From contig NC_088345.1 of the NCBI RefSeq assembly GCF_036884655.1, forward strand, positions 32,214,501 through 32,278,500: a stretch of 64,000 nucleotides of DNA, given 5' to 3'. The DNA is from Musa acuminata AAA Group. Lineage: Eukaryota; Streptophyta; Magnoliopsida; Zingiberales; Musaceae. This document shows, piece after piece, positions 7,430 to 41,424 of this stretch. The notes beneath the pieces are model-generated. The model was not told the origin of the DNA. It was given only the letters and a program-made list of their open reading frames with translations, and did not search any database. Every line of letters begins with the position of its first letter. Position 1 is the stretch's first letter. The position numbers were made by a program, and so were the translations under genes.

Positions 7430-7434
7430 GTCGA

Positions 7435-10831: not shown

Positions 10832-13045
10832 AAAGTGTACCTTGTAGAGAAGGTGAAACAAAAGCTTGGAGAATCTTCGGGTACATTCATGACCAGTCTC
10901 TATTTGTTAAATTCTTATAATAACAGATGGGTATTGGATACTGGCAATGTTTATCACATCTATAATTTGTTGCAGGTTCTAGCAAGACCTAGAAGATTGG
11001 TGAGAAGCGAGATGAACCTTAAGATGGGCAATGAAACAAAATTGCTGTAGTGGTTGTTGGCGAGGTCACCCTACATCTGCCTAGTAGAGCTACTATTACA
11101 TTGGATACATGCTACTTTATTCCTTCTATTATTAAAAATATTATTTTCATTTCATGTTTGACAACTAATGGATATAAATTAATTTTTGAGAATAATAGTT
11201 GTTCAATTATTAAGGATGATAAGATCGTCACGAGAAGAACATTGTATAATGGTTTATTTATACTAAGCATTTCTTCATATATCATGAATGTAAGTGTGTT
11301 CAAGATAAAACGAGATGAGATGAATAGTGCATACCTATGGCATTGTAGGCTAGATCATAACCATGAGGGAAAGATTCAAAAGTTGCTAAAGGATAGATAC
11401 CTAGATCCATTCGACTATGAGTCATATGCAACTTGTAAGCATTGCCTTCGTGGAAAACTGACCAACTCTCCATTTAGTGGAGTTAGAGAGAGCTATTGAG
11501 TTGTTGGAACTCATACATAGTGATGCATGTAGTCTCATGTCAACTCAGGTCATAGGTGATTACTCCTAATTTATTACTTTTATTGATGATTTCTCTAGGT
11601 ATGGATATATGTACTTGATGAAGTATAAGTCCAAAGCTTTCGAGAAATTCAGGGAGTATAAGAATGAAGTAGAGAAATAGACTGAAAAGAGTATCAAGAC
11701 TCTTCAATTAGATTGAGGAGGTGAGTACTTGAGTATAGAGTTCACCAAGTTTCTCAAGGACCATAAGATTCTATCCCAGTTGACGTCTCCTTATACACTC
11801 CAACTTAATGGTGTATCCAAAAGGAGAAATGATACACTATTAGACATGGTGTGGTCCATATGAGTTTCGCCAATCTACCCATCTTATTCTAGGGATACGC
11901 CCTAGAGTCCACAGCTTACCTTTTGAATAGAGTTCTAAGTCGATAGTATCTACACCATATGAGATATGGAAAGGGAAGAAACATGATCTTAAGGTTGTTA
12001 AGATTTAGGGCTACCTTGCCCACATTAAGAGACACAACCCCGACAAGTTGAAATATAGGATGGAGTAGTACAAGTTTGTGAGATACTATAAGGAAACTTA
12101 TGAGTATTATTTCTATCGCCCCTAGGATCAAGAGGTCTTTGTAGCTAAGAGGGCAGTGTTCCTAGAGAAGGAACACATTTTTGGTGGAGACAATGGGAGC
12201 ATGATGGAGTTGAGCAAAGTTGGAGAACCTAACTCAAGCACCATTCTATAGCTCGAGTCTATTTAGGTACCTAAAATATAAGTTTCAACTTTATATAGGT
12301 CTGATAGAGTACCCCATCCTCCTAATAGATATGTGAGACGTATCAGAGGAGAGAATGTTGAAGATATTGATCCTCAAACCTATGAGGAGACTTTTACGAA
12401 TATAGACTCTAGGAAGTGGCAAGAAGCTATGAATTCTAAGATTGATTCTATGTACTCCAACAAGGTTTGAAACCTAGTTGATGCACTTGAGGGTATTGTA
12501 CCCATTGGTTGCAAGTGGACCTTCAAGAAGAAGATCGGAGTGAAAAGGTGGAGACCTATAAAGCAAGGCTAGTGGCTAAAGAGTATCGTCAAGGGCAAGG
12601 TGTTGACTATGACGAAACCTTCTCACCCGTAGCCATGCTAAAATCCATCCGAATTCTATTGGCTATTACAATATACTATGATTATGAGATTTGACAAATG
12701 GATATGAAAACCACCTTCCTTAATCGTAATCTTGAGGAGAAGGTGTATATGATACAACCTAAGGGATTTGTGTCTAAAAAAAGTCTAGATAAGATATGCA
12801 GATTGCTTAGGTGTATTTATAGACTGAAGTAAGCTTTTTCAAGTTGGAACATAAGATTTGATGCGACGATAAGATCTTATGACTTCGTTAAGAACGAAGA
12901 TGAGCTATGTGTGTACAGAAAAGTAAGTGGGAGTACTATCACCTTCTTAGTGCTATATGTAAATGACAACCTGATCATTGGGTATGATATAGGAATATTA
13001 TCTATAGTAAAGGTTTTGCTATCTAGATATTTCTCTATGAAGGAC
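10832..13045 (+). pseudogene. Protease-integrase-RT part of E (copia pol)
   Basis: Protease motif WVLDTGN at about 10928-10948. GAG-pre-integrase 'YLWHCRLDHNHEGKIQKLL' is followed by CKHCLRGKL. Integrase and RT are recognisable (11500-13045: FSRYGYMYLMKYKSKAFEKF, KARLVAKEYRQGQGVDYDE TFSPVAMLKSIR, VYRKVSGSTITFLVLYV) but carry many stops and frameshifts. The YVDD motif is YVND here. Pol is cut at AGGAC (13041-13045) by gypsy C and continues, inverted, at 20392. Confidence 0.8.
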
Positions 13046-13386
13046 TGTTAGGACTCTAGCTAGGAGAGTCCTAATTAAGAGGGACATTCATGTAGGAGGT
13101 TTTTTCTTAGAGAAGAATTAGGAGTTGTAAGGGAATAGGAGTCTTGAGTAGGAGTCCTATTAGGAGTTGGTTAGAAGTAAGAGTCTTAAGTAGGAGTCCT
13201 ATTAGGAGTTAGGGTTTAGAAGCCCTATAAATAGCCATGTATTCCTTCTCTTTTCTTAAGCAATAGATGAATCTTTTCTGCAGCCTTTGAGTAGCAACTT
13301 GGAGGGAGGAACCCCTATAGAGTTTCAAGGAGGCCGATCCCCTAAAGAGATCAATCCCAAGTTTAGAATCTGCAAGGGTTCTAACA
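13046..13386 (+). repeat. 5' LTR of C (341 bp)
   Basis: TGTTAGGACTC...GGGTTCTAACA. TATA box TATAAATA at 13226-13233. Contains tandem 'AGGAGTCCTATTAGGAGTT' units. Nearly identical to 20393-20733 (reverse). Confidence 0.9.
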
Positions 13387-13388
13387 CC

Positions 13389-13404
13389 TGGTATTAGAGC
13401 AGCG
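13389..13404 (+). other. Primer binding site of C
   Basis: TGGTATTAGAGCAGCG two bases after the LTR, close to the initiator Met-tRNA complement TGGTATCAGAGC (one C to T). Confidence 0.7.
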
Positions 13405-13797
13405 TTCTTGGCATCTCACTGTCCTTCCATAGCCATCCATCAGCCCTCCACAACCGCCCAAAGCAATTCCCACAATTTCTTAAAAGATCGTCGCCAAATT
13501 CCGCCATCATCTCCACCATCGTGGATCATCCTTTGATCTCCACGTAAATTGCAACAGGTTCTGGTTTCCTACCTTACTACTGCTGTAATTTAGTTATCCC
13601 TATCCGAAAATCCAAAAAAAAAAAATTGTTCCTATATTACTGCATAAACTTTTCATCACAAAGTTTTCATCTCTACAACGAAAGATACATTGCAGAATTT
13701 CAGCCACATAGCACTATTTGTTTGATCTTGATACTATATTTTCTCTATCCAAACCAATCCCCCAACCCTTTCAACCATCACTTCTCTTAACCTATAC

Positions 13798-14730
13798 ATG
13801 CCTTTAACCCGTCAACAAAAGAGAGATCTTAACATCATAGATTTGGAGTCATATACTATGGCATCTGAGGAGGCAATCAATATAAAATTTGAAGCCTTCA
13901 AGGCATGAATGGAGGATAAGATTCGGACTCTCCTTACCGAATTCAGTTTGGGCCGACCATGAAGCCCGAAGAAATCACATCAAGGATAGAGCTCTAACCA
14001 ATCACATCATGCCCAAAGAGATGACTTCTAAGAGAGGGGAGGCTCTATAACCGACCCCAACTATTCGCGCATGAGAGTGGACTTCCCTAGATGGGAAGAA
14101 GGAGACCCAATTGGTTGGATCTCGCGCGCTGAGCGATATTTTCGGTACCATAAAACTGCGGATGCATCTATGGTGGAAATTACAGCTATACATCTTGAAG
14201 GGGATATCATACAGTGGTTTGAATGGTTTGAACACACATATGGAGTCCTTTCATGGCGATAATTCAAAGAAGGACTGCTGAACTGCTTTGGACCAACTTA
14301 TTACGAGAACATTGACGGACAACTAGCAAAGATCCGACAAACCTCCACCATTCAGGACTACCAAACTAGGTTTGAAAGGTTATCTAATCAAACTCGTGAT
14401 TGGTCTAAAAAATAGCTATTGGGAACCTTTATTGAGGGCTTAAAGTCGGAGATCCGGGAAGAAGTTAAGGCGCGACAACCATACACGCTTATGGCAGCCA
14501 TCTCTTTCGCACGACTTCAAGAGGAGCGATTGAACCATGAAGCCCAGAGGACTAGGATCACTCTTCAACCTACAATACTAAAGCCCTTAGCCCCCCCTAC
14601 TATCAACTGAGTCCTTGCACCAAAAAGGTTAACAAGAGAAGAACTTCGGGAGCGATATGCGAAGGGGTTATGTTGGCATTACGACGAGCCGTGGAGCCAC
14701 GAGCATCGCTGTAGAAAAGGGAGACTTCTT
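13798..14730 (+). pseudogene. gag of C
   Basis: ATG at 13798 (MPLTRQQKRDLN), broken by several stops. Retrotransposon gag domain at about 14071-14600: RVDFPRWEEGDPIGWISRAE, AIHLEGD, RQTSTIQDYQTRFERL, LLGTFIEGLKSEIREEV. A zinc knuckle near 14670 reads CWHYDEPWSHEHRC: the second Cys of the CCHC pattern is Tyr. Gag leads straight into the protease frame. Confidence 0.75.
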
Positions 14731-16188
14731 ATGATTGAACCAGTAGAAGAAGAGGTCATTGAACATCCAGAAGAGAGCCTTGAATATGAAATAGAAGATA
14801 TGGAAGAAGAGCCACAACCGACTGACATTACGGTACACGCACTAGCCGGCTACTCAAACCCGCAAACGATGAAAGTTGGAGGCCTTCTCAAACAACAGCC
14901 GATTACTGTTCTCATCGACACGGGCAACACTAATAACTTCCTGAATAGTAAGGTTGCTACTCGAATGACACTACATATTGAAGGTTGCAGCAAGTTCAAT
15001 GTAAAGGTGGTCGACGGCAGAATCCTAAAGTGCGACCAAAGATGCCCGCAGGTGAAACTATTACTGCAAGACCAAGAAATCATCACCGATTTCTTCCTCC
15101 TACCACTTGATGACTATGAGGCAGTGCTTGGTATAGAATGGCTGACTACACTAGGTGATGTCTCTTGGAACTTTTCTAAATTAATTATGAAATTCTACTG
15201 TAAGGGCAAACAGATCATCCTACACGGGAAGCGCGGAAGCAACGTTACCACTATTTCGACCCAACGAATGGAGAAAGTTTTACACAAGGTAAATGGTGGC
15301 TTTTTGATGCACCTCCAGCAGCAATCAGAGGGGAAGAAAATAGAAATTGAAGATCAAAATCTTACCCAATTGCTTACTGAATTTGCCAACATTTTTGCTG
15401 AACCATGCGGTCTTCCTCCTTCTCGAAAACATGACCATCGAATTCCAATCCTTCTGGGCAAGCCACCAGTGAACACTCGACCTTACCGATATCCTCACCT
15501 CCAAAAAGATGAAATTGAAAAGATCGTAAAGGAGATGCTTGAAACAGGGGTGATTCGGCCAAGTTGCAACCCCTATTCCTCACCAGTGCTACTTGTACGC
15601 AAGAAGGACAGAACTTGGCGGATGTGCATCAACTACCGAGCTTTAAATCGTATCACCATCAAGGACAAGTACCCAATACCAGTGGTGGATGAACTTCTTG
15701 ATGAATTAAAAGGAGCTCGAGTCTTCACGAAGTTGGACCTCCGATCCGGTTACCACCAAATTCAGGTATGTGAAGATGACATTCCAAAAACTGCATTCCA
15801 CACACATGATGATCATTATGAATTCTTGGTAATGCCTTTTGGACTCACTAATGCTCTTTCAACCTTTCAAAGTCTCATGAACGATATTTTTCAGAGCTTT
15901 CTTCGCAAATTTGTGCTGGTATTTTTCAATGATATTCTCATTTACAGCCCTTCTCTTGAGACTCACTTTCAGCATTTACGAATTGTTCTGACAATCCTTC
16001 GGGAGAATACTCTTTTTGTTAAGCAACCAAAGTGTAGCTTTCTCCAGCAAAACGTAGAGTACCTTGGGCACATAATATCAGAAGGAGTGGCGGTAGACCC
16101 AACAAAAATTGAGACAATGCAAGGCTGGTCGAAACCTACAAACGTGAAATTACTACGTGGGTTCCTTGGACTAACAGGCTACTACTGA
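14731..16188 (+). pseudogene. Protease and reverse transcriptase of C (485 codons)
   Basis: A long open frame with an aspartic protease (active-site DTG at residues 63-65, within LIDTGNTNNF) and a Ty3/gypsy RT: RPYRYPHLQKDEIEK, GVIRPSCNPYSSPVLLV, WRMCINYRALN, FTKLDLRSGYHQI, MPFGLTNA. The RT active site reads FND at residues 399-401 instead of FDD (AAT at 15928-15930); loss of this metal-binding Asp predicts a dead enzyme. The frame ends in TGA after GLTGYY where the family has Arg, consistent with CGA to TGA. Homologous sequence continues after the stop. Confidence 0.85.
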
Positions 16189-17590
16189 AAATTTGTTAAG
16201 GACTATGGGAAGATCAGTGCACCACTCACTTCTATACTAAAAAAATATGCTTTCCAATGGTCGGACAAAGCCTCTACTTCCTTCGACAAACTTAAGGTAG
16301 CCATGACAACGACGTTAGTGCTAGCACTACTAGATTTCAGCCGACCCTTCATCATTGAGACCGATGCATCTGGAGTCGGAATTGGAGCCGTTCTCATGCA
16401 AGATGGTCGACCACTTGCATACACTAGCAAGTCATTATCTCCCTCCCATCAAAGCATGTCAGTATATGATAAGGAGATGCTCGCCATTGTACACGTAGTA
16501 ATGAGGTGGAGACCCTACCTGATCAGCCGATGATTTCAAATTAAAACCGACCATAGAAGCCTCAAGTATTTTTTTGAGCAAAAGATATCACCCCTTGAGC
16601 AACAAAAATGGGTAACCAAACTTCTTGGATTCGATTATGAAATTATTTACAAAAAGGGGAAAGAAAATGTTGTTGTAGATGCACTCTCACAGCTACCTGA
16701 GCAAGCTAAGGTTTCAGCCATCTCCCTTCCTACCACTAGTCTCCTCGTGGACATTAGGGAAGAATGAAAGAAGGATCCAGAGATCAACAACATTATAAAA
16801 AAATTGGAGGAGGATCCAAGTGCAATAGCCCACTACACTTGGGATTCGAGGGATCTATGCTACAAGGGTCGTATTGTGCTTATACCTGACTCCCCTTGTA
16901 TCACAATCATCCTGCATGAAATGCACTCCATACCTTCAGCAAGGCACTCTGGATTCCTAAGAACCTACAAAAGAGTGAAGCAAAATTTTTATTGGAGAGG
17001 GATAAAAAAAATTATTGCTGAATATGTGGCACAATGTGATGTATGTCAACAGCACAAGGGTGAAACTGTGGCAAATCCAGGGAAACTACAACCACTACCT
17101 ATACCGGACTCGGTGTGGACTGACATCTCCATGGACTTCATTGAAGGGCTGCCACCTGCCAAAGGTAAAAGCACAATTCTCGTGGTGGTTGATCGACTTA
17201 CGAAATATGCTCATTTTTGTGCTGTGAGAAGTCCCTACACTGCTGCTAGTATTGCCCAAGTTTTCATAGAAAATATTGTCAAACTGCACAGGATGCCAAG
17301 GTCCATTGTAAGTGATCGTGATAGGATCTTCACTAGTAAATTTTGGACCGAGTTATTCCAGTTACAAGGCACCAAACTCAAGATGAGCACATCGTATCAT
17401 CCACAAAATGACGGCCAAACAGAGGTGGTAAATAAGTGTTTAGAGACATACCTTCGGTGTTTTGCTAGCGACTGACCAAAAGAGTGGGCAAAATGGCTTC
17501 CCTAGGCCGAATGGTGGTATAATACTACATATCATTCATCTACAAAATGTGCCCCTTATGAAGCATTGTATGGTCGACCAGCCCCTGTGA
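16189..17590 (+). pseudogene. RNase H and integrase of C
   Basis: RNase H: IETDASGVGIGAVL, YTSKSLSPSHQSMSVYDKE, then a stop and KTDHRSLKYF. Integrase zinc finger and core (16804-17475): HSGFLRTYKRVKQNFYW, CDVCQQHKGE, WTDISMDFIEGLP, VSDRDRIFTSKFW, TSYHPQNDGQTEVVN, so the catalytic D, D and E are all present. Four or more in-frame stops. The copy breaks at 17590, inside the stretch after YGRPAPV, and resumes in the same frame on the minus strand from 21361. Confidence 0.85.
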
Positions 17591-18161
17591 CCGCCTGACA
17601 CAATTTAGGATATTGTGTTTTGGTAGTACCACCGCCAGACCCTACTACATGATACTAAATGGGCCAAACAATAGGGCCAATTCAACCCTGATTTAGGCCC
17701 AATTGGCCTCGGATTGAGTTGACATTGTTTCACTCAAATACCGACTCAATTAGACCTAAACTAACTCGATCTAGATAGATTATTACAAAGCATGAATCAT
17801 TTGATCTCTAGTATGTCATTGGTTCTTCCGGCGCTTCATCCGATCCTTCGGCGTATTGTCCTCTCCTTCAGCATATTACCCAATCGGCATGTTGACTCCT
17901 ACAACTTCTGATCTCCTTGGCATAATGTTTGATCCTTTGGCCCGATGCCCAAACTCATAGCACAAAGTTCTTCTGCCAGCACGACAACCGATCCTTTGGC
18001 CCGGCGTCCAATCTCCTGATATGTTCAACTTCAACCCAACGTCTGATTCATCCTACTTCAATCAATTTGCATCTCCTTAATCGAATATCTTCTTGCATCA
18101 CTCAAAACGCAGATTAGATCATAAACTCATTATTTGATTTCATCATCAAAATTCAAGATTC
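17591..18161 (-). repeat. First part of the 5' LTR of D (inverted)
   Basis: On the minus strand it begins TGTTGAATCTTGAATTTTG at 18161 and matches D's 3' LTR start at 35141-35704, including the 'CATTGGTTCTTCCGGC' type stretch. The base flank (CGAGA at 18162-18166, i.e. TCTCG on the element strand) equals TCTCG after D's 3' LTR at 40717-40721. Confidence 0.8.
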
Positions 18162-19038
18162 AACACGAGACTCAGTAGAAACTGTATGAGTCTGTCAACA
18201 CAATATTTGATATACAATCTTTGGGATATTAGATATATGAGGGACTATAAGTACATGGTAACTGAGAAAATCTAGGTCCAAAGGTTTGGATTCCCTTTTA
18301 TCGTCTAGGGACTATGGCGTAGTGGCCTAGTACGTCCGTAGTCGATGAGTCGAGTGAATTATTATAGAGATAATAATTCATTGAGCCAGAAGGAGTTTTG
18401 ACAGGTATGACTCAAGGCCAGCTCGATATTGGACATAGAGGGTCACACAAATATGGTAAGCATTGTGACGAGTAAAGGTTCAGATATTAGATATCCATCA
18501 GAGCCCCTATCTTATTGGATCCTATGGATGAGATCCAATACAAGCCAATGAGATATTATTAGATAGAGATCTACTAATCTAAGAGGCTTAGGTAGTTAGA
18601 TGGAGATCCAATACCCAATAGGACAGGATCCATTAGGGTTATGTTAATAAGGGGTCTCTATAAATAAGAAGGAATCAAACACCCATAGGCTAGAGGTTTC
18701 TTAGTTGCCACCTCCTATTCTCCTCTCCCCTTCTCCTTATTAGATAACAAGTGTAGATATTTACGCAACGATTTGAGGAGTGTCCTCTTAGCCTTGCTAT
18801 GTGGATCACTGCTTGAGAGGAGGACGCTTGACCTCCTTCATCCTTTCCTATAGATTTGCAGAGATTCAGGAATATACGATCTCCCTAGGTAACACAACAA
18901 TCTCATGCATGGTTTTAAGTTTCACGGGTTTTGTGCACCAATCTTCGCACAACGATGAACACATTTTTGGGAAATTTGGGGTTTTTATTTTTCTATTCTT
19001 CTGCTGCGCATGTGATGTCGACCTTAGATTTCCTTACA
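18162..19038 (+). repeat. Part of copia LTR L (second half)
   Basis: Matches copia LTR positions ~725 to end, finishing TTTCCTTACA at 19038. Its first half is 40717-41419 on the minus strand. With the inversion undone, L is a single reverse-oriented LTR of about 1575 bp in E's 3' LTR, flanked by GTGTC (reverse of 19039-19043) and GTATC (41420-41424): a solo LTR with one mismatch in its target duplication. Confidence 0.75.
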
Positions 19039-19488
19039 GACACACCATTGAGATGACAGAATCATTATCTGGCAATGAGGTATTATGAACCATTCAGCAT
19101 TCCGAAAGTAGATCAATAAGTGAACTAATTCTCTAATGAGCACCTACACGGTATTCCTAGTATCCCCACATGAGCAGCTATGAGACCAGTTGCCTCCATC
19201 ATATGGATGGGTATACAGCACATCAGTCTATCCGGTCATCTCGATACCCATCTTGAGTGACCTATGATCAAGATTATTTATGGTTTAAGTTTAAAGGTGA
19301 ATTTGTCTCATTATCATGATATCATCACGATCTGATTCCTATTGCACAAATCTGTGGATATCATAATATATGTAGTATGCAAGATAAAGTGATAAAATAT
19401 CAAATAATATAATAAGCAAAATGAGTGCATATCATGTCACATGTGTCATTACTCACGTGAATGGCTTATAGGGCACCTATGACTAGCA
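19039..19488 (-). repeat. First part of the 3' LTR of E (inverted)
   Basis: On the minus strand it starts TGCTAGTCATAGG at 19488 right after the polypurine tract (AAGTGGGAGAT, 19489-19499 reversed). The LTR continues at 41425-42662. Confidence 0.75.
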
Positions 19489-20392
19489 ATCTCCCACTTG
19501 ATCTAAAGCCAATCACCTCGATGTTTGATCCCCATCAGATTCCTATGATGCTTAAAGACAATTTGAGACAATGGCTTTATCAATGGATCTACTATGATGT
19601 TATCTTCAGATGGAACTCTTTCTACTAATATATCTCCTTGGGCCATGATCTCTTTGATTAAGTGGAACCTCCTTAAAACGCTTGATGAGGCCTTGATTCC
19701 TACGCTTGAATAATCGCCCTATTGCTATCGTAATATAAGGGACTCAACTTCTTGCTGCTTGGCATGACTCCCAAATCTATGATGAACTTCTTCATCTAAA
19801 CTCCCTGCTTTGCTACCTCTGCTATAGCAATGTACTCCACCTCTATGGTCGAATCAGTAGTAGTATTTTGCTTGGAACTCTTCCAGCATACTAGTCCTCC
19901 ATTATGAGTGAACACATACCCTGAATTAAACTTGTTGTCATCGACATCAAATTGGAAACTCGAGTCCATGTAGCTATCAACCTTAAAACTACTACATCCA
20001 CATACTAGTAAAAGATCCTTAGATCTTCTCAAGTACTTAAGGATATACCTTATTGCTTTCTAGTGCTCCAAACCTAGATCCGCTTGATACCTACTTGTGA
20101 TAATTAGAGCATGTGCTATATCAGGCCTAGTACATAACACAACATACATGATAGACCATATCGCTGAGGCATAGGGTATTCATGTCTGCCCTTTCTTTAG
20201 GAGTCTTTAGGCACATACCCCTAGAAAGTGATATCCTGTATCTCATCGGTCTAGGACCTCTCTTGGAATTTTCTATGCAAAACCTTTTAACAATGGTGTC
20301 TATGTACTTGGATTGGGATAAGCCAAGCATCCTCTTGGATCTATCTTTATATATCTGAATCCCTAAGTTATAGGATGTTTTCCCTAAGTCCT
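19489..20392 (-). pseudogene. RT end and RNase H of E (inverted)
   Basis: Continues E pol from the AGGAC target copy at 20388-20392. Readable motifs: GIQIYKDRSKRMLGLSQSKY, NSKRGPRPMRYRISLSRGM, then RNase H with LLLVCGCSSFKVDSYMDSSF, SGYVFTHNGGLVCWKSSKQ and VEYIAIAEVAKQGV. Stops separate the pieces. It ends at the polypurine tract. Confidence 0.8.
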
Positions 20393-20733
20393 TGTTAGAA
20401 CCCTTGCAGATTCTAAACTTGGGATTGATCTTTTTAGGGGATCGGCCTCTTTGAAACTCTATAGGGGTTCCTCCCTCCAAGTTGCTGCTCAAAGGCTGTA
20501 GAAAAAATTCATCTATTGCTTAAGAAAAGAGAAGGAATACATGGCTATTTATAGGGCTTCTAAACCCTAACTCCTAATAGGACTCCTACTTAAGACTCTT
20601 ACTTCTAACCAACTCCTAATAGGACTCCTACTCAAGACTCCTATTCCCTTACAACTCCTAATTCTTCTCTAAGAAAAAACCTCCTACATGAATGTCCCTC
20701 TCAATTAGGACTCTCCTAGCTAGAGTCCTAACA
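20393..20733 (-). repeat. 3' LTR of C (341 bp, inverted)
   Basis: Reverse complement of the LTR at 13046-13386 with six transitions. Preceded on the minus strand by a purine-rich tract GAAGAGGGCGGATC (20734-20747 reversed). Confidence 0.9.
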
Positions 20734-20762
20734 GATCCGCCCTCTTCAAATCAGCCTTGTCC

Positions 20763-21361
20763 TCAAGGCTGAGATTCCATGAACTCAGGGAATCGGGTCT
20801 TCAGCTCCTCATATGGTTCCCATATGGTGTCTTCAAGTGGTAAATTATTCCAATGCACTAGTACTTCAGTAGAGGAACGTCGACGATGCATCACGATCCT
20901 GCGATCGAGGATGGCTTGTGGTTGAGCTTGAATAACTCCATCCTCAGTGGTGTTGGGCAATTTGATCTGGGGTGACTCGTGTTCTGCCAACTTGGGCTTC
21001 AGGCATGACACATGGAAGACAGGGTGAATTTTGGCATCCTCAGGTAATTTAAGTCTATACGTCATTGCTCCAATATGCTCTGTGATCTGATAGGGCCCAA
21101 AAAATCGTGGAGATAGCTTCATGAAGGCTCGAGTGTTGATGGAGAGTTGCATGTATGGTTGTAGGCGAAGATAAACCCAATCTCCTACTGAAAATTCTCT
21201 TTCGCTTCGTCATGTGTCGGCCTGCTGCTTCATTCTGGCTTGAGCTGTAGAGAGATTATCTTTTAACAATTGTAGGAGTTTGTCCCTATCAATCAATTAT
21301 TGTTCAACCTGATCTACCTTGGCCGAGCTAATTACATACTTTGAACCAGATTGGGTAGATG
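20763..21361 (-). pseudogene. Integrase end and chromodomain of C (inverted)
   Basis: The frame 21152-20763 carries the gypsy integrase C-terminal module (LSPRFFGPYQITEHIGAMTY, HPVFHVSCLKP) and a chromodomain at the end (EVLVHWNNLPLEDTIWEPYE, then ELKTRFPEF). Chromodomains guide integration to particular chromatin marks. The part before 21152 has two stops (TAA, TGA). It joins in frame to 17590 once the inversion is undone. Confidence 0.85.
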
Positions 21362-21366
21362 TACCA

Positions 21367-21743
21367 TGATAGAACCCTAACGGATTCTAAGCTTAGGGTT
21401 GATCTCTTTAGGGGATCGGCATCCTTGGAACTCTATAGGGGTTCCTTCCTTCAGGTTACTGCTCAAAAGCTACTAAAAAGATTCATCTATTCCTTGAGAA
21501 AAGAGGATGAATACATGACTATTTATAGGGCTTCTAAATCCCAACTCCTAATATGACTCCTACTCAAGACTCCTACTTCTAACCAACTCCTAATAGGACT
21601 CCTACTCTAAGAAGCAACCTCCGAACTAATCTTAACCTTAGCCGACCTCTTCACCTCTTTAATAGGGGTCGACTAGATAGGTTTTACATGAATGCTCCTT
21701 TCAATGAAACTCAATTAGGACTCTCCTAGCTAGAGTCCTAACA
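21367..21743 (-). repeat. 3' LTR of B (377 bp)
   Basis: On the minus strand TGTTAGGACTCTAGC...GGGTTCTATCA. Preceded by the purine tract GAAGAGGGCGGGTC (21744-21757 reversed). Confidence 0.85.
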
Positions 21744-21779
21744 GACCCGCCCTCTTCAAATAAGCCTTATCCTCGAGAC

Positions 21780-23142
21780 TAACAATCCATGAATTTTAGG
21801 AATTTGATCTTCAAGTCATCATAATTCTCCCAAGTGGCATATTCTACTGGTAGGTTCGCCCACTATATTAGCACTTCAGTAGTGGGTCGTCGTCGTCGAG
21901 TCACAATCCGTCGATCAATAATGACACTCGGTTGGGTCTGGAGTTCTCCTTGGGTAGTCATATTTGGTAGATGGTTTTGGGCTCCCTCGTTTTGTCCCAT
22001 CTTAAGCTTTAAACATGACACATGGAAGACTGGATGGATTCAGGAGCTAGCGGGTAAGTCCAATCTGTATGCTACTACTCCGATGTGCTCCAAAATTTAG
22101 TAGGGTCCATAGAACCAAGGTGAAAGCTTCATAGATGCTCTAGTCTGGATTGATGTTTGCTTGTATGGCTGGAGCCGTAGGAAGACCCAATCTCCTACTA
22201 AAAATTCTCTTTCGCCTTTGTGTTGATCATATTCTTGTTTCATCCTTGCTTGAGCTATAGTGAGATTATCTTTTAGCAACTTCAGCATTTTATCTCTGTC
22301 CTGTAGTTCCCTGTCTACTTGTTCTACTTTAGAGGTGTCCAACACATATTTTGGGATCACAAGGGGAGGTCGACCATATATAGCCTCATAGGGAGTATAT
22401 TTTATGGATGAATGATAAGTTGTATTATACCACCACTCAGTCCAGGGAAGCCACTTTGTCCACTCTTTTGGCTGGTCACTGGTGAAGCATATAAGGTATG
22501 TCTCCAAGCACCTGTTCACCAATTTAGTCTGGCCTTCGCTTTATAGGTGATATGTCATACTCATTTTCAATTTAGTGCCCTGCACCTGGAATAACTTTAT
22601 CCAAAATCTGCTCGTGAAGACCCTATCATGATAAGTTACAATAGATCTTGGCATCCCATGCAATTTTACAATATTCTCCACAAAGATTCAAGTAATGCAA
22701 GAAGCAGTATAGGGATTATGGACATCGCAAAAGTGAGCATACTTTGTAAGGCGATCAACCACGATAAGAATGTACCTTTTCTTTGTGATGAGGGAAGCAC
22801 TTCGATGAAGTCCATTGATATATTAGTCCATATTGAGTCCAAGATGGGTAGAGGTTGCAGCTTTCCGGGACTTGCCACTGTCTCGCCTTTATGTCATTGA
22901 CATATATCACATTGTGCCACAAATTTAGCAATAATATTTTTCATTCCTACCCAATAAAAATTTTGCTTAATTCTCTTATAGGTTCTAAGAAACCCGGAGT
23001 GCCCGGCTGTAGGTGTGGAATGCATCTCTTGAAGGATGGTGTTTATGCAAGTAGAATTTGGCACAAGAACAATGCGTCCTTTATAGCGCAATTCTTTTGA
23101 GTCCCAACTGTAATGAGCCACAGAGCTTGGTGCTTCCTCCAA
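21780..23142 (-). pseudogene. Integrase and chromodomain remnant of B
   Basis: Integrase zinc finger HSGFLRTYKRIKQNFYW, CDICQ, then WTNISMDFIEVLP, core pieces, and the C-terminal part VNRCLETYLICFTSDQPKEW, WWYNTTYHSS, YGRPPLVIPKYVLDTSKVEQ. The last ~300 bp (22090-21780) are a chromodomain with frameshifts. Stops and a frame change fall near 22500-22880. Confidence 0.8.
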
Positions 23143-24650
23143 TTTTTTTATGATCTTACTATTTTCTAGATCTTCCTACCATTCCATCTTAATATCCTCA
23201 AGGAAGTCATTGGTCGAAAGTGAAATGGTCAAAAATTCAACTTGCTCGGGTAGCCGCAAAAGAGCATTTGAAACAACATTCTCTTTCCCCTTTTTGTAAG
23301 TTATTTCATAATCATATCCAAAAAGCTTTGTTACCCATTTTTGCAACTCGGGGGAAGATATCTTCTGCTTTAAGAAATATTTTAGGCTTTTATGGTCAGT
23401 CTTGATTTGAAAGTGTCACCCAATCAAGTACGATCTCCATTTGGTCACAGCATGCACAATCGCAAGTATCTCCTTATCGTAAATAGTCATTTTGAGATGG
23501 GAAGGAGATAATGCCTTACTAGTATAAGTGAGGGGGCAGCCATCTTGCATTAGTACAACACCAATTCCGACTCCAGAGGCATCGGCTTTAATAACAAAAG
23601 TTTTACCGAAATCAGGTAGCGCTAGTATGGGCGTTGTCGTCATTATGGTTTTAAGTTCGTCGAAGGCGGTGGTGGCTTTGTCTGACCATTAGAAAGCATC
23701 TTTTTTCAGCAAGAAAGTAAGGGGTTCACTGATCTTTCCATAGTTTTTCACAAACTTACAGTAGTAGCCTGTTAAACCGAGAAAGCCGCGTAGCGATTTT
23801 ATTTTCCTTGGGGTCGACCAGTTTTTCATTACTTTAATTTTGGAGTGGTCTACCACCACACCTTCCTCTGATATGATATGCCCAAGATATTCTACCTTCT
23901 ATTGAAGAAAGCTGCACTTCGATTTTTTGACAAAAAGAATATGTTCTCGCAAAATTATCAAAACAAGTCGTAAGTGCTAAAAATGACTTTCAAGAGAAAA
24001 GCTGTAAATAAGGATATCGTCGAAGAAAACCAGCACAAACTTATGAAGATAATTTTGGAAAATATCATTCATAAGGCTCTAGAAGATGGAGGGAGAATTG
24101 GTGAGACCAAAGGGCATTACTAAAAATTCGTAGTGGTCGTTGTGTGTTCGAAAGATGGTTTTCGGTATGTCTTCTTCGTACACTCGTATTTGATGATACC
24201 TGGATCAAAGGTCCAGCTTTATGAAGACTCATGCTCCCTTTAATTCATTATGTAATTTATCTACTACTAGAATAGGGTATTTGTCCTTAACGGTTATGCT
24301 ATTGAGAGCTCGGTAATCAATGCACATTCGTCATGTTCCATCCTTCTTTCGTACGAGGAGCACCGATGAAGAGTAGGGGCTGCAACTTGGCCAAATAACT
24401 CCTGTTTCAAGCATCTATTTTACAATCCTTTCTACTTCATCCTTTTGGAGATGTGGATACCGATATGAGAGAGTATTTACTAGAGGTTTGCCCAAAAGAA
24501 TCGGTATATAATGATCATGCCAACGGGTAGAAGGTAGGTTGCGCGGTTCGTCAAATATATCTGAAAATTTAGCAAGTAAAGGAAGTAGGTTTGGATCTTC
24601 AAATTTTATTGGCTCTCCCTTAGTTTGCTGCTCAAGTTATACCAAAAACC
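23143..24650 (-). pseudogene. RT and RNase H of B
   Basis: RNase H is open at 23643-23416 (LPDFGKTFVIKADASGVGIG, then VVLMQDG, YTSKALSPSH, YDKEILAIVHA). The RT lies upstream with many stops; its active site still reads FFDDILIYS (about 24035-24009), unlike the mutated site of C. Confidence 0.75.
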
Positions 24651-26671
24651 CGCTGCATGCTTTGTGTAAAACCTTCTTCATTCGTTGTGTGTAAATCATC
24701 GTTATGTCACCCCCACGTTTCCTGTGCAGTATCACTTGTTTCCCCTTACTGTAAAATTTCATAATTAGTTTCACAAAGTTTCAGGAAACATCATCTAATG
24801 TCATCATCCATTCGATGTTGAGCACAGCCTCATAATCATCAAGAGGGTGGAGGAAGAAATCTACAATTATTTCTTGGTCCTATAGCAAAAGTTTCACCCG
24901 TGGTCACCTATGATCACACTTCAAAATTCATCCATCGGCGACCTTAACGTCAAACCTACTACAATTATCGATAGGTAAGGCCATCCGGACAGTAACCTTG
25001 CTCTTCATAAAATTATTAGTACTCCCAGTGCCAATAAGAACGGTGATAGGTTGTTGCTTCATAAGCCCTCCCACTTTCATCATTTGCGGGTTTGCGTAAC
25101 CGGCAAGGGCATGTATCTTAATATCAACCGGCTACTGTTCTTCATCCATGACCTCTTCCTCATGCTCATGGACCTCCTCCTCCATGTCTTCAAGAGGTTC
25201 AATTTGTAGGAGGCGACCCCTTTTACAGCGATGATCGTGGTTCCACGGCTCGTCACAATGCCAACAAAGACCCTTTGCTGATCGGTCATGTAGTTCTTCT
25301 CTTGCCAACTTTTTTGGTAGTGAAGGATGGTTGGGAGCAGAAGAAGGTTTATATGCTATAGGCCTAGGAGAGGTTCTTATCCTTCAAGCATCTTGGATGA
25401 GTCGTTCTTCTTGTATTCGGGTGAAAGAAATCACAGTTGTCATGGTACAGGGCTACCGCGCCTTAACCTCCCCTTTTATCTCTGGCTTAAGTCCTTCGAT
25501 GAATGTTCCTAATAATTGACGGTTAGTCCAATCACAAGCAAGGTAGGATAACTTCTCAAACTTGGTTTGGTGCTCTTGAATTGTAGAGGTTTGTCGAATA
25601 TTTATGAGTTGGCCATCGATATTTTCATACTCCGTAGGTTTGAAATGATTCAACAGTGTGTTCTTAAATTGATTCCACATTGGAGCCCCATGATTGTATT
25701 CCAGCCAATTGTACCATTGAATAGCATTTCCTTCAAGGTGGATGATAGCAATTTCCACCATAGCATTATCTGATGTTCGATAGTAGCGAAAGTAACATTC
25801 GACGTGCGAAATCCACCCCGCCGGGTCTCGTTCTTCCCATCACGGGAAGTCTACCCTCATGCGTGGCTGAAGCATGTCCAGGGCTGTCTCTCCTTCTCTG
25901 GAGGCATCTCTAAACTCTCTCTTTATTGAAATTTGGTAGGACTCGGCGGTTGTCTAATTCTGAATTTTACAAACAAAGCGTGTAATTTGTCCTCCAAGCG
26001 CGATTCAAGCCGCGATTCAATCCGAGATTCAATCCGAGATTCCAATGCTTCAAATTTGGCATCAATTGAATCTTGAGAAGCTATAGAATATACCTATAGA
26101 TTAGAGATGTCCCTGTATTTTTTTGTTGATGGGTTAATGGCATGGGGTGGTGGAAGATTCGAAAAAATTTAGGATCACAGAAAGGTACTGTAGCAGGTTT
26201 TTACGTCTAAAGTGTAGCAGTTTGAACATAAAAGGTCAGTAGTTTATATTGAGAATTTTTTAACAGAACCAAATGGAAATATGCTGTTAGGAAGTGTCAA
26301 ATTTGTCGTAAAAATTTTGTAGAGATTTGGACAGAAAAAATGCAGTAGCAATATCAAACAAACTATGCAATGTGATTGGAATTCTGCAGTGCATCTTTCG
26401 TCGTAGAGATAAAAGCTTTGTGATGAAAAGTTTATGTAGCAATATAGGAACTTTTTTTTTTTAATTTTTGAATAAGGATAACTAAATTGTAGCAGCAGTA
26501 AGGTAGAAAACTAGAACCTATTGCAATTCACGGGGAGATCAAAGGATGATCCGAGGTGGTGGAGATAACGATGGAATTCGATGATGATCTTTTAAGTAGT
26601 TGTGGGAATTGCTTTTGGCAGTTGTCGAGGGCTGATGGATGGCTATGGAAGGATAGTGAGACACCAAGAAT
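24651..26671 (-). pseudogene. gag and protease of B with leader
   Basis: gag fragment 25761-25453: MVEIAIIHLEGNAIQWYNWL, RQTSTIQEHQTKFEKLS, LLGTFIEGLKPEIKGEVKAR. A zinc-knuckle and acidic hinge region lie near 25290-25080. Protease near 25055-24990 reads IGTGSTNNF, so the active-site DTG is GTG. The stretch 26100-26671 is untranslated leader. Confidence 0.7.
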
Positions 26672-26688
26672 GCTGCTCTGATACCAAG
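26672..26688 (-). other. Primer binding site of B
   Basis: Minus strand CTTGGTATCAGAGCAGC directly after the LTR end TTCTATCA: initiator Met-tRNA complement. Confidence 0.8.
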
Positions 26689-26994
26689 TGATAGAACCCT
26701 AGCAGATTCTAAGCTCGGGGTTTATCTCTTTAGGGGATCGGCCTCCTTGGAACTTTATAAGAGGTTCCTTCCTCCAGGTTTCTGCTTAAAGGCTGCTAAA
26801 AAGATTTATCTATTCCTTGAGAAAAGAGGATGAATACATTACTATTTATATGGCTTCTAAACCCCAACTCCTAATAGGACTCCTACTTCTAACCAATCCC
26901 TAATAGGACTCCTACTCTAAGAAGCAACCTCCAAACTAAACACAACCTTAGCCGGCATCTTCACATCTTTAATAGGGGTCAGCTAGGTTGGTTT

Positions 26995-28879
26995 TGTTGA
27001 ATCTCGGATTTTGATGATGAAGTCAATTGTCATTTGTTATCTAATCTATGTGTTGAGATAAGTGTGCAGGATTAACTACGATGAGAGTAAGACAAGCAGC
27101 AGGTGTTGCGCCGGAGTCAAGATCATGATCATGTTGGGAGTTCGAGAGTTCGACGGAAGTTCGGACGGTCGTCGGAGGTTCAGCGAGAACAGATCCGAGA
27201 AGTCCAGAAGCTTGCCAAGCGAAGCTCGTCGGAACTCGCCAAGTGGATCGTCGCAAAGTCCAGGAGTATGCCGGATGTCCGCAGAAGGATCACCGAGGGA
27301 TTATCGGATGATCGACGGAAGTTCGCCGGAAGAAGCGATTGACGCATCGGAGCATAGCTGCAGAAGTTGTCTTAGAGTCAATCGTAGTTAGCACGATGAT
27401 TAAGCTTGAAAATGGGAGGTGATCCCATTAGCTTAATCTTGGGGCAATTGGGCCCCTGAAAAGATTCAAATTGGGCCGAATGGAGCGAACCATTCGGACC
27501 CTGATTGCACCAGGCGGTGCAACCGCCTAGGCCAAGAGGTGCAACCGCCCAGGCCATGTCTCCCAGCGAGACTGGGCGGTGCAACCGCCCCAGCCAAGAG
27601 GTGCAACCGCCCAGGGCTCAGTCTCCAAGCGAGACTGGGCGGTGCAACCTCCTCTGTCAAGAGGTAGCACCGCCAGAGCTCAAGTTTCGAGCTCTGGCAG
27701 AGAGGTGCATCAGCCTGAGCTCAGTTTCGAGCTCTGCCAGGTGATGCAACCACCGAGCTCGGTCTTCGAGCTCTACCAGGCGGTGCAACCACCGAGCTCA
27801 GTCTTCGAGCTCTGGCAGAGAGGTGCAATCGCCTGAGCTCAGTCTTCGAGCTCTGCTAGGCGGTGCCACCTCTCCAGTCAAGAGGTGCAACCGCCTGATC
27901 CCGGAATTCCGGGATTTGATCGTTTTGAGCTCCAAATTTGAATTGGGTTGGGGCCTATAAATACCCCACCCATTCAACACTGAAAAGATACAGATCCACA
28001 CCGAATTATTGATCTTTTCAGTGATTCTAAGAGCTCAAATTTGTGTAAAGTCCTAAAGTTCTCCTCCTTCTGTTCTTCAAGTCTTGAGTTGTAAAGAGAG
28101 GAGAGAAAGGATCTGTAAAGGTTGTCTCCTGAGCCTGTCAAAAGGAGAGAAACTGTAAAAGGGCAGTTAGCCTTCGCCCATTGAAGGAAGGCAGCTAGTT
28201 GACGTCGGTGACCTCGTCGGAGGAGGAAGCCAAAAGTGGAGTAGGTCAAGACTGACCGAACCACTCTAAATCTCTGGTTTGCTTTTACCTTGAGCACTTT
28301 ATCATTACTGCAAACCTCCTACATTGCTACTGCCCTCTGCGCCTTTACGAAAGAGTTCCTAAGCTCTGATCTTTCAGAATCTGCATTCAAACGTAAATCT
28401 TGTTTTCGTACGATATTCACACTACAGTTTTCGCTTACATTCGGATTCCATTTATAACTGCAAATTGCTTTCTACGTAAAACGCTTTTCAAGGTTCAAAA
28501 CTGCTTTTAGACGCAAAACTACATTTAGACGTAAAATTACGTTTAGACGTAAAACTGCGTTTAGACGCAAAACTGCGTTTAGACGTAAAACTGCGTTTAG
28601 ACGTAAAACTGCGTTTAGACGTAAAACTGCGTTTAGACGCAAAACTGCGTTTAGATGTAAAACTGCGTTTAGACGTAAAACTGCGTTTAGACGTAAAACT
28701 ACGTTTGAACGCAAACTGTGTTTAGACGCAAAACTGCGCTTAGACGCAAACTGCACTGTGATTCTGCTTTTATATCGAAATCGGTTTTTATCGGACGAAC
28801 GCAGCTTTCTTTTTTAAATCGCTGTAAAATTTCCGCTGCACTAATTCACCCCCCCCTCTTAGTGCTCTCGATCCTAACA
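26995..28879 (+). repeat. SIRE-like solo LTR inside B (1885 bp)
   Basis: TGTTGAATCTCGGATTTTG...CTCTCGATCCTAACA, flanked by GGTTT (26990-26994) and AGTTT (28880-28884), a target duplication with one change. It has the GGCGGTGCAACCGCC palindromes (27510-27900), a TATAAATA box near 27956, the 18-bp array at 28481-28755 and an 8-nt C run. Long open frames here only reflect the repeats. Confidence 0.85.
28481..28755 (+). repeat. 18-bp tandem array in the solo LTR
   Basis: About 14 copies of TTTAGACGTAAAACTGCG, the most regular array in the window. Because 18 is a multiple of three, the minus strand is open as a repeated LRLNAV peptide. Confidence 0.85.
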
Positions 28880-28948
28880 AGTTTTATATGAATACCTCTT
28901 TAAATGAAACTCAATTAGGACTCTCCTAGCTAGAGTCCTAACATACTA

Positions 28949-29717
28949 CCCAAACACAATCTTCCAAACTATGTCAAGTGGTGGTACTACCCAAACACAG
29001 TCTGCAAGCGGTGGTACCGCCTAGACAGAGTCTTTCAGACTATGTTAGGTGGTGGTACCATTAGACTAGGTGGTTATTTCACCTAGTGTCAGTGTGTCAG
29101 GCAGTGATACCGCTAGACTGGGCGGTGGTACCACCCAGTGTCAAAATTGATAAGCGATGGTACTACTAGTACCTCGAAATCCCAGGGATTCAAATTTTTG
29201 GCTCCAAATTTTAATTCATTTGGGGCCTATAAAAACCCCACTCATCCTTACTTAGTTAACACAAAAACTAAGAACAAAAATTAGGGAAAATACTATTGTA
29301 ATATTGTGAGAATTCCCCTCCTCTAGCTCTAATTATTTATTTCAGTTTAAGATAGGGGTGAGTGAATTGTAAAGGTTATCTCATAAACCTGTGAAAATGA
29401 GAAAATAGATATACAAGGGTAGTTGGTCTTCAACCATTGAAAGAAGACTGTTAGTGGATGTCGGTGGCCTCGAGTAAAGAGGAATCAGGAGTGGATGTAG
29501 GTCATGACGATCAAACCACTATAAATCTAGTTTGCATTTACTTGAAGCTCTTCATTTTTATTGCAAACTGACTTTTTACTTTCACTACGCTTACGAATGT
29601 GTTTTCAAGTTAACATCTTTCCAATATCGGTTTTTATCGAATAAGAATTTCCAAATTGACGTAATTTTATATAAGCACTAATTCACCTGCCCTCTTAGTA
29701 CCGACTTAATCCTAACA
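28949..29717 (+). repeat. Second part of the 5' LTR of D
   Basis: Contains GGTGGTACCACC-type palindromes, a GGGGCCTATAAAAACCCC box near 29222, and ends CCGACTTAATCCTAACA. Matches 40046-40716. Confidence 0.8.
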
Positions 29718-29719
29718 AT

Positions 29720-29733
29720 TGGTATCAAAGCCA
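29720..29733 (+). other. Primer binding site of D
   Basis: TGGTATCAAAGCCA two bases after the LTR; initiator Met-tRNA complement with one change. Confidence 0.75.
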
Positions 29734-29766
29734 CGTTTCTCTCCATTGGATTAACACCCAAGAGAG

Positions 29767-31277
29767 ATGGCTTTTTTCAGGTTTCAAGAGGGTCTTTCTA
29801 TCACTCGTCCTCCTATGTTCAATGAGACGGACTATACGTATTGGAGAACACGAATGAGAGTTTTCTTGCTTTCTTTAAACTTTAATTTATGGAATATTAT
29901 CGAATATGATTTTTAATAACCCTCTAAACCTATGAATGAATGAAATGATTTTAAGATAAAATCATTTTAGTTAAATGAAAAAGTTATGAATGCTTTACTT
30001 TATGTTTTGGATAAAAATAAGTTTAATCATATTTTGTCTTGTGAAACTGCACATGACATTTGGCACACTCTTGAAATCATACATAAAGGCACAAGTAGAG
30101 TTAAAGAATCAAAAATTAATCTTTTGATGTATAGTTTTGAATTGTTTCGAATGGAACCAAGTGAAACCATTGGAGACATGTACACCCGTTTTATGAATGT
30201 CGTCAATGGTTTGAAAGCACTTGGTAAAAGTTTTTCTAATTTTGAACTTGTTAACAAAATACTAAGATCCCTTCCAAAAAGTTGGGATTCGAAAGTGACA
30301 ATAATATAAGAGACAAAGGACTTGAATAATTTCCTTCTTGAAGAACTTATTGGGTCTTTAATGACCTATGAAATGACTTGTATAGAACATGATGAACTTG
30401 AGAATAGCCTTCCAAAAAATAGGAAGGATTTGACACTTAGAACAAATGAAGACAACTTGAGCGAAAGCTCAAGTGATGATGACTTTGAACTCTTAACAAT
30501 AAAGCTTAAAAGGTACTTAAAACAAGAATCAAAAAATAAAAATGAACTTAAAAAGAAGAAGTTGTCAAAGAAGAAGAAAGCATCAAGGTAACTTGGGACG
30601 AAACGAGTGCTTCCGAAAACGAGGAGCAAACCGATGAAGATGAAGGGGTGAACTTCTCGTTGATGGCTCTCGACAACGAGGTAAATGACTCAACTAAAAT
30701 GTCTTTACCTTACAATGAATTATTTGATATATTCAATGATTTGTATGATGAATTTAAACTAGTTAGTAGAAAATATAGGTTATTAAAAAATGATCATGCT
30801 TCTCTTGCTAGTGAATTTGAAAATTTAAAAAATAAGCATGATAATTGCATATTAACTCATTGCACTAAATATAAAGAGTTAGACTTAGTTAAGAATGAAA
30901 ATATATTACTAAAAAAATATTAAAAAATTTTAAAATTGGTAGCAAATCATTAAACATGATTCTTGTCAATAAGGGTCATGTATATAAAAAAGTAGAAATT
31001 GGTTTTGTAAGTGGCAACACTCAACAAAAACTGACTTTATTTGTTAAAAGATCCACATTACATGTTTACCATGAAAATAAATATAATTTTTATGGTAGGT
31101 GTGGATACTTTACACAAATTTCCATTCAAGAAGTATGGCTTGCATAAATTAGTTTGGGTTCCTAAAGGAACCATAAATGATCTTATGTCAAAAATCAAGA
31201 TAGATAGATCCAATCATGAGGGACCCAAAGCTAAATGGGTACCTAGAACAAACCCACCCTTCTTGTGGACATCTTAA
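29767..31277 (+). pseudogene. gag of D
   Basis: ATG at 29767 (MAFFRFQEG). Copia UBN2-type gag: DYTYWRTRMRVFL, ETAHDIWHTLEIIHKGT, LLMYSFELFRMEPSETIGDM, FELVNKILRSLPKSWDSKV, LEELIGSLMTYEMTC. Then an acidic/serine and lysine-rich part, a coiled-coil-like segment (NDLYDEFKLVSRKYRLLKND, 30715-30920), a degraded knuckle (RCGYFTQ), and LVWVPKGT / GPKAKWVPR, typical of SIRE gag C-termini. Several stops. Nothing resembling protease, integrase or RT follows. Confidence 0.8.
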
Positions 31278-34200
31278 AAATTGAAAGCTAAAAGCAAAAG
31301 TTGATTTTTTTATTATGGATGCTCAAGGCCTATAACCTAAGATCCAACACACTTTACAAAGCTCACTACCAGAAACAAAATAATTTTGAAAATGCTTTAT
31401 GTTTAAATCATGCTTGATGATTTAATGATTTAATTATGCATGATGATTTGAAGTAATGATGATTTTTATGATTTATGGTTTATTGATCTTGATGATTTCA
31501 ATGATGAAATTTTCTCTTTCGGCTTTAAACGATGATGCATATTTTGATTTAGCATAAAAAACTTAGGCATGCTTATATGAAATCAAATCACTTAAATTGA
31601 AATAAAAAGGGGAGAATGTAATTTTTCATGAAAATATCTCTAAAGCTTTTCGAATTTTCAACAAGTGATTCCTAATGATGAATCTATTTTATGTTATCTC
31701 TTTAATTAATAAATTGATTTTGATGATTTGATAATTTCAATTTGAATGAGTTTTATCTATATCATGATCTTGAATTCTTGGAATTATAACTTGAGATTTT
31801 CTTTTATAAATCAGGATCTTTGACTCTTTATTCTCGTTTGATTCTTGGATTTTATTTAAGAAGAGATTTTCTATATGAATCATGAAATTTCTTATGTATG
31901 AATCAAGATATTTTACCATTCTATTCTCCTATGTTTCTTTTTGCTATTTACATAAGAACAGATTTATCAAAATGAATTAGGTCTTTTGGTATTCAAATGA
32001 TCTTTATTATTATATCTTTTATATCATGATTTATTTATGATACTCCCATGTATTAATAAATTGTATACCATATCATATTTGATTTAAATTTATTTTTGTC
32101 ATGATGTGAAAATTGATGTAAAGGGAAAAGAATTACAAAATTGTATTCTTCCATTTTTTTTTTTTACAATGACAAAGGGAGAGATAAAATTGCTAGCTTG
32201 CATGTTCTAAAATAATGAAAAACTTGTTAGCTTATACATTTCAAGGAGAACTTGCTAGCTTACATATTTCAAGGAGAAGAATTTGCAAACTTGCACATCT
32301 CAAGGAAGCAAACATGCAAACTTGTACATCTCAAGAAGAAAAATTTATAAACTTGCACAACTCATAATTGTTGCTAGCTTGTATGCTGTAAAACTTATAT
32401 ATCTCAAAAACTTACTAGATGTGTTGAATCTCATATTTTGATGATGAAACTACTTGATATATGTTTATGATTTAATCTGCGTTTTGAGTGACGCAGGATG
32501 CTTCGATTAGGATGAGACAATTAAAGCAGGAAAATCATGTTGTGCCGAAGGAACATGTCAGAAGATTGGACGTCGGGCCGGTGGATCGGTCGACGCATCG
32601 ACAGAAGGCTTCGGGCCATGGACTCGGGCATCGGGCCAAAAAGAGAGGGTATTGTGCCAAGGATATCGGAGTTGCAGAGTCAACTGGCCGATTGGGAAAT
32701 AGGCTGCAGGAGAGGACGATGCGCCGAAGAATCGGACGAAGCGTCGAGGGACCAATGACATGCCGGACAACTTGGTTAATTGCTTAGGATTAATTGTCTC
32801 GATCGAAGTTATGTTTTAATTGTGCATGATTAACTATGATAACGATGAAGACATAAAGTGAAACAAAGTGTTGGAGTCAAGTGCGAAGGATTTGTTGCGA
32901 GTTCGAGAGTTCGACGAAAGTCTGAAGGTTCATCGGGAATGCTACCGGAACTAGCCGAGAATGAGTTGGGAGCTTGCCAAAGGGTTTTTCGGAAGCTCAC
33001 CGGAAGGTTCGTTGGAAGTTCACGGAGCTCGCCGAGAAAGATCGGAGCTTGCCGAAGAAGCTCGTTGGAACTCGCTAAGATCAAATCGTGAAGTCTAGGA
33101 GCTTACCGGGAGTCCGCAGAATGGTTTCCGAGAGTTCATCGGAAGACCGCCGGAAGTTTGCCGGAAGCTCGCCAGAAGAAGTCTTGACTTGCGGACTTTG
33201 TAATAGCTTAGAAAATGTCTTTAAATTCATAGTTAGGACGTTAATTAGGGTTAGGATTAGGTGTTAATCCTATAACCCAAGTAGGGGCCAATTAGGCCCA
33301 AGTTCGGACTGGTTTGGACCAAGTTTGGAGCCAAACCAAGTGAGCTGAAATAGTGAAAGAGGTGGCACCGCCAGGGTTGGAGGTGGCACCGCCCAGGAGA
33401 GGATCTCCCAGCGAAGCTGGGCGGTGCAACCGCCCCAAGCAGGAGGTGGCACCGCCTGGGCTCAGTCTCCGAGCGAGACTGGGCGGTGCAACCTCCCCTG
33501 ACAGAGGTAGCACAGCCTGAGCTCGGTCTTCGAGCTCTGGCAAGAGAGGTGCAACCGCCTCAGTCAGGAGGTGGCACCGCCTGGGGCTCAGTCACCGAGC
33601 CAGACTCAAGCGGTGCAATCGCCCCTGACAGAGAGGTGCAACCGCTTGGGCTCAGTCTCCGAGCTCTGCCAGGCGGTGCAACCTCTCCAGTCAGGAGGTG
33701 CAACCGCCTGATCCTGGAATTCCGGGATTTGATCGTTTTGAGCTCCAAATTTGAACTGGGTTGGGGCCTATAAATACCCCACCCATTCAGCACAGAAAGA
33801 GCAAGAGACCTACACCGAAATCTTGATCTTCTCTGTGATTCTTGAGCTCAAAATTGTTGAAAAGCCTTTAAGTTCTCCTCCTTCTGTTCTTCAAAGTCTT
33901 GAGTTGTAAAGAGAGGAGAGAAAGGTTCTGTAAGGGTTGTCTCCTGATCCCGTCAAAAGGAGTGAAACTGTAAAGGGGCAGTTGGCCTTCGCCTATTGAA
34001 GGAAGGCCTCTAGTTGACGTCGGTGACCTCGTCGGTGGAGGAAGCCAAAAGTGGAGTAGGTCAAGACTGACCGAACCACTCTAAATCTCTAGTTTGCTTT
34101 TACTTTGAGCACTTTATCATTACTGCAAACCTCCTACATAGCTACTGCCCTCTACGCTTTTACGAACAAGTCTCTAAGTTCTGATCTTTTCGAATCTACA

Positions 34201-38983: not shown

Positions 38984-39094
38984 ATCCAAAGCTTTGGTTA
39001 TATGTTTTTGTATGTACTTTGGATAAGAATAAAATGAATGCAACGTCAAATATGACGTTTGAGCTTCTGTTTCATAATTGTTCTATGATATGCT

Positions 39095-41419: not shown

Positions 41420-41424
41420 GTATC

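What the first reader, a model, noticed from the sequence alone, without database searches (positions are those of the whole stretch)
17591..21361. Base-exact 3771-bp inversion cutting through four nested retrotransposons
Gypsy C is on the plus strand to 17590 and on the minus strand from 21361, yet its outer target copies (AGGAC at 13041; GTCCT at 20388) show one insertion. The same flip explains split copies of copia E, LTR L and the 5' LTR of D (TCTCG on both sides only after flipping). Undoing it restores C in frame and restores the D LTR with no base lost or gained. Such clean rejoining of two breaks is unusual for end-joining in plants; the right break lies exactly beside B's target copy.
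Basis: seen in the sequence. Interest (0 to 1): 0.8.

Follow-up and report, generated by a model that had tools for sequence, protein, structure and literature searches.

The report
Small inversion inside nested retrotransposons
A 3.8-kb piece of a plant's stacked jumping genes has been flipped, probably after two DNA breaks; the flip is clear and can be placed to the base, but it looks like ordinary break repair rather than anything exotic.

Summary
Bases 17591-21361 are inverted relative to their surroundings. Three insertions split by the flip (gypsy C, copia-type D, solo LTR E2) regain their 5-bp target duplications only if it is undone, and related copies in the window run across the split points. 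D's LTR is restored apparently without loss: its 3' LTR has GGCGG|TACTA unbroken. The title's "base-exact" fails for C: 18 bases beside the right break (21344-21361) are absent from C's relatives, and about three of C's own bases are missing. None of 190 fetched related proteins spanning the site has the net five extra residues. The break sites show no homology. The likeliest cause is two double-strand breaks rejoined in inverted order, one joint nearly blunt, the other with an 18-bp filler. Published plant inversions also lose few bases, though most show microhomology, which is at most 1 bp here. The right break beside B's target copy is probably coincidence: B's LTRs diverge about 0.10, C's 0.018, and the inversion is younger than C. 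A random break would hit some element edge exactly with a chance of about 0.1%, counted after the fact. No reads were available, so an assembly error is unlikely but not excluded.

The parts
17591..21361 (.). Inverted segment, 3771 bp (3753 bp of older sequence plus the 18-bp insert)
13046..17590 (+). Gypsy C, 5' part (5' LTR 13046-13386; protease, reverse transcriptase and integrase pieces)
20393..21343 (-). Gypsy C, 3' part (integrase tail and chromodomain piece; 3' LTR 20393-20733)
13041..13045 (+). Target copy of C, AGGAC
20388..20392 (-). Other target copy of C, AGGAC on the minus strand
21344..21361 (.). 18-bp insert (filler) at the right joint, absent from C's fetched relatives
17591..18165 (-). 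Start of D's 5' LTR, inside the inversion
18166..18170 (-). D's left target copy (TCTCG on the minus strand)
28949..40716 (+). Remainder of D (5' LTR resumes after B's right target copy and ends at 29717; 3' LTR ends at 40716), with younger insertions inside
40717..40721 (+). D's right target copy, TCTCG
18166..19038 (-). Part of solo LTR E2 (copia E family), inside the inversion; given as minus because the flip reversed it
40717..41419 (+). Other part of solo LTR E2, outside the inversion
19039..20392 (-). 3' end of copia E1 (end of the internal part and start of the 3' LTR), inside the inversion
41420..41424 (+). E2's right target copy GTATC; its partner is 19039-19043 (GTGTC on the minus strand)
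21362..21366 (+). Left target copy of B (TACCA), flush with the right break
21367..28943 (-). Gypsy B (3' LTR 21367-21743), with element F (26995-28879) inserted in its 5' LTR
28944..28948 (+). Right target copy of B (TACTA)

Best explanation
Two double-strand breaks, one in gypsy C and one in D's 5' LTR just outside B's target copy, were rejoined with the 3.75-kb piece between them turned round. The left joint shows no detectable loss from D and at most one base of microhomology. The right joint has an 18-bp insert, and about three bases of C were lost. The inversion is younger than C's insertion, and by LTR divergence younger than D and B too. The inverted order is shown by the sequence; the break-and-rejoin pathway is inferred.
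For: Three split insertions and the paralogue alignments at their split points are made whole by one flip. The two break sites show no homology: the best inverted score is 10 against a shuffled mean of 8.9 (48 of 200 shuffles as high), the best direct score 9 (114 of 200). The 18 bases occur nowhere else in the window within three mismatches. Of 208 fetched proteins besides the reference P0002, 190 span the site: 186 have the reference length, one is a residue shorter, one a residue longer, two are ten shorter, none is five longer. Joints with 0-1 bp microhomology and joints with fillers are both described for plant break repair (PMC10923293, passages), as are plant inversions with few bases lost (PMC8581144, passages).
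Against: No template for the insert could be shown: the best match within 60 bp, 17537-17551, agrees at 12 of 15 bases and 19 of 300 shuffles score as high. In PMC8581144, 20 of 23 plant inversions had microhomology of 2-23 bp at a joint; here it is 0-1 bp. D's apparent zero loss and the exact fit to B's target edge are tidier than average.
Confidence: 0.77

Rival explanations
1. Assembly or cloning artefact: a segment was flipped when the sequence was put together.
For: No reads and no second assembly could be examined; the region is highly repetitive.
Against: There are no Ns in the window, no homology between the two break sites, and the right joint holds an 18-bp string found nowhere else in the window, which an assembler would be unlikely to invent.
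Confidence: 0.12
2. The integration of B caused the inversion: a gap or break left at the edge of its target site was joined to a break in C.
For: The D break is flush with the outer edge of B's target copy, where one strand is cut during integration (recalled). Two random breaks meet one of 24 assumed element edges exactly with a chance of 0.0014, within 2 bp 0.0068, counted after the fact.
Against: B's LTRs differ at 33 of 360 sites and C's at 6 of 341, so B came well before C, while the inversion came after C. This rests on a clock and on no gene conversion between C's LTRs.
Confidence: 0.04
3. Recombination between inverted repeats: C and B are inverted relatives (73% over 3 kb) lying close together.
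For: C 14619-17590 pairs with B 25318-22357 in inverted orientation.
Against: The breaks are not at matching positions of the two elements, and the break sites show no homology.
Confidence: 0.03
4. Replication-based template switching made the inversion.
For: An insert at one joint fits such models in general (recalled).
Against: No duplication and almost no deletion was seen at the joints, which fits cut-and-rejoin better.
Confidence: 0.04

Closest known systems
End-joining inversions in irradiated Arabidopsis (PMC8581144, passages)
   Same: Two-break inversions in which few bases are lost
   Different: 20 of 23 of those had microhomology of 2-23 bp at a joint; here it is 0-1 bp, with an 18-bp insert at one joint
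Filler DNA at plant break repair, polymerase theta-type joining (PMC10923293, passages)
   Same: A short insert at a repair joint
   Different: No template could be shown here
Transposon-induced inversions by alternative transposition in maize (PMC8225341, seen only as title and start of abstract)
   Same: An inversion with a break beside a mobile element
   Different: Those involve ends of cut-and-paste transposons (recalled); here the neighbour is an LTR retrotransposon that seems older than the event

Membership tests
Inversion by end joining of two breaks | Segment flipped in place, flanks otherwise collinear | tested here: met
Inversion by end joining of two breaks | No extended homology between the break sites | tested here: met
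   48 of 200 shuffles reach the inverted score, 114 of 200 the direct one
Inversion by end joining of two breaks | Small losses, inserts or microhomology at the joints | tested here: met
   18-bp insert and about 3 bases lost in C; 0-1 bp microhomology at the left joint
Polymerase theta-type joining | Insert copied from nearby sequence | tested here: inconclusive
   shuffles scoring as high as the best match are 19, 53 and 135 of 300 for flanks of 60, 150 and 400 bp
Recombination between inverted repeats | Breaks at matching positions of inverted repeats | tested here: not met
Integration-coupled inversion by B | Inversion of the same age as B's insertion | tested here: not met
   LTR divergence of B far above that of C, which the inversion cuts; rests on a clock
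Alternative transposition by DNA transposons | Terminal inverted repeats of a cut-and-paste element at the break | not tested
   No search for such ends was made
Ty3/gypsy chromovirus (C) | Reverse transcriptase before integrase, chromodomain at the C-terminal end | tested here: met
   RVT_1, Integrase_H2C2 and rve on the left pieces; SH3_Tf2-1 and Chromo on the right piece

The most novel reading that the evidence does not exclude
The outer edge of an old retrotransposon's target duplication is a preferred break site, for example because the inverted pair C and B folds into a hairpin whose stem ends there, so that retrotransposon edges steer where plant inversions form.
Probability: 0.05. Interest if true: 0.55.

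Novelty: new member of a known kind. Interest (0 to 1): 0.22.

Why it matters
It is a clear worked example: nested insertions with target duplications act as markers that place both breaks of a small inversion to the base and order it after a young insertion. Such cases are useful for studying how plant genomes repair breaks in repeats. It does not call for a new mechanism.

Tried and rejected
An early reading of mine put the left break two bases off, which made C look out of frame; one search corrected this, and C is formally in frame. One search used that wrong position and is superseded. One row of the alignment (window 17477-17590) was in the wrong frame and is disregarded. One search used a pattern that was too narrow (it recognised 7 of 95 proteins) and was replaced. 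A search for the left-joint string in prokaryote genomes and for an LTR-end string in viral contigs found nothing, as expected for a plant. Recombination between the inverted repeats and integration-coupled inversion were considered and set aside as stated. Four paper searches listed 7, 2, 3 and 8 papers; by title none is about this locus, and only passages of two were seen. Nothing wider is claimed about the literature.

Full report
What is there. The window holds a stack of nested LTR retrotransposons. Self-comparison and the element ends give this nesting: copia E1, whose 3' LTR holds the reversed solo LTR E2; D inserted in E2; gypsy B in D's 5' LTR; element F in B's 5' LTR; and gypsy C in the internal part of E1. 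Pfam finds protease, reverse transcriptase and integrase domains on left pieces of C (14611-16185, 16768-17472) and the integrase tail plus chromodomain on its right piece (20763-21206). It also finds copia-type domains in E1's left part (11035-11496) and in the related element at 53465-55633, and a copia-type gag in D (29971-30306).

The inversion. C is on the plus strand to 17590 and on the minus strand from 21343 down to its LTR end at 20393. Its target copies AGGAC are inverted to each other (13041-13045; 20388-20392). E2 and D each have one target copy inside the segment, reversed, and one outside (19039-19043 with 41420-41424; 18166-18170 with 40717-40721). Related copies in the window run through the split points of C, E2 and D with overlaps of 7, 7 and 5 bases, about what a target duplication requires (coordinates in the observation check). 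Agreement at three insertions makes chance very unlikely.

The joints. With the flip undone, D's GGCGG (17591-17595 on the minus strand) is followed by TACCA (21362). D's own 3' LTR has GGCGGTACTA at 40056-40065, after a similar left context, so nothing seems to be lost there. A caution: this part of D's LTR consists of diverged short repeats, so the match could be to a neighbouring unit, and a loss of a few bases cannot be ruled out. At the left joint the last base of C also fits D, so microhomology is 0-1 bp. At the right joint the C sequence agrees with its family up to 21343, while bases 21344-21361 have no counterpart in B. The six fetched proteins closest to P0002 (P0005, P0096, P0001, P0006, P0019, P0008; 93-99% identical) all have the same length at the site. 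Of 208 proteins besides P0002, 190 span it: 186 of equal length, one -1, one +1, two -10 residues. These 208 are the other 94 hits and the further proteins among the 120 listed's 2078 hits; the rest were not looked at. C has a net five residues more. The simplest reading is an 18-bp filler with about three bases of C lost; the three are inferred from B's DNA and the family's protein. That the total stays in frame has a one-in-three chance and means little, since C's frame already has stops.

Where the insert came from. No match within three mismatches exists elsewhere in the window. The best local resemblance (17537-17551, 12 of 15) is not significant: 19 of 300 shuffles for 60-bp flanks, 53 of 300 for 150 bp, and for 400 bp another match with 135 of 300.

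Order in time. LTR divergence (K2P): C 0.018 +/- 0.007 (6 of 341); B 0.10 +/- 0.017 (28 of 297), with 5 of 63 in the distal part; D 0.15 and 0.20 for its two parts. B and C differ clearly (Fisher P about 1e-5). The inversion cuts C, so it is younger than C. This assumes a clock and no gene conversion. It argues against B's integration as the cause, although the D break is flush with B's target copy. With 24 assumed edges over 35 kb, two random breaks would hit an edge exactly with probability 0.0014, and within 2 bp with 0.0068. This was computed after seeing the coincidence, so I treat it as a curiosity, kept alive as the novel reading.

How it fits what is known. Irradiated Arabidopsis gave 23 inversions among 41 rearrangements. 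Of the 23, 20 had a joint with microhomology of 2-23 bp, 11 had deletions of 1-61 bp, and 6 had only very small indels; in three the overlapping bases were kept (PMC8581144, passages). At Cas9 breaks in Arabidopsis, classical end joining mostly gives 1-5 bp deletions with 0-1 bp microhomology, while fillers mark polymerase theta-type joining (PMC10923293, passages). The left joint resembles the first and the right joint the second. Nearly clean rejoining is therefore not surprising in plants.

Host. One relative is named Musa textilis (P0006: 77% identical to B, 95.5% to P0002), so a banana relative is likely. This is inference: the window's own genome could not be searched.

Verdict.

Noticed in passing
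48043-50780 and 58385-61020: Two direct copies about 10.3 kb apart, 97-98% identical, each an E-type LTR followed by the same reversed piece of copia; the second copy lacks about 100 bp that the first has near 49062-49161. They share one rearranged junction, so this may be a recent duplication of an already rearranged piece.
   Followed up: partly
28497-28754 and 34551-34784: Tandem arrays of 18- and 17-bp units (14.4 and 13.7 copies), the first inside element F; similar arrays appear near 5151-5400 and 56309-56603 in the self-comparison.
   Followed up: partly
7435-9020: An E-type solo LTR with target copies GTCGA at 7430-7434 and 9021-9025, inserted in another retrotransposon.
   Followed up: partly
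26995-28879: Element F nested in B's 5' LTR, target GGTTT on the left and AGTTT on the right, matching GGTTT at the same place in B's 3' LTR.
   Followed up: partly
28949-29175 and 40056-40110: D's LTR holds several diverged short repeats built on GGTGGTACTACC.
   Followed up: no
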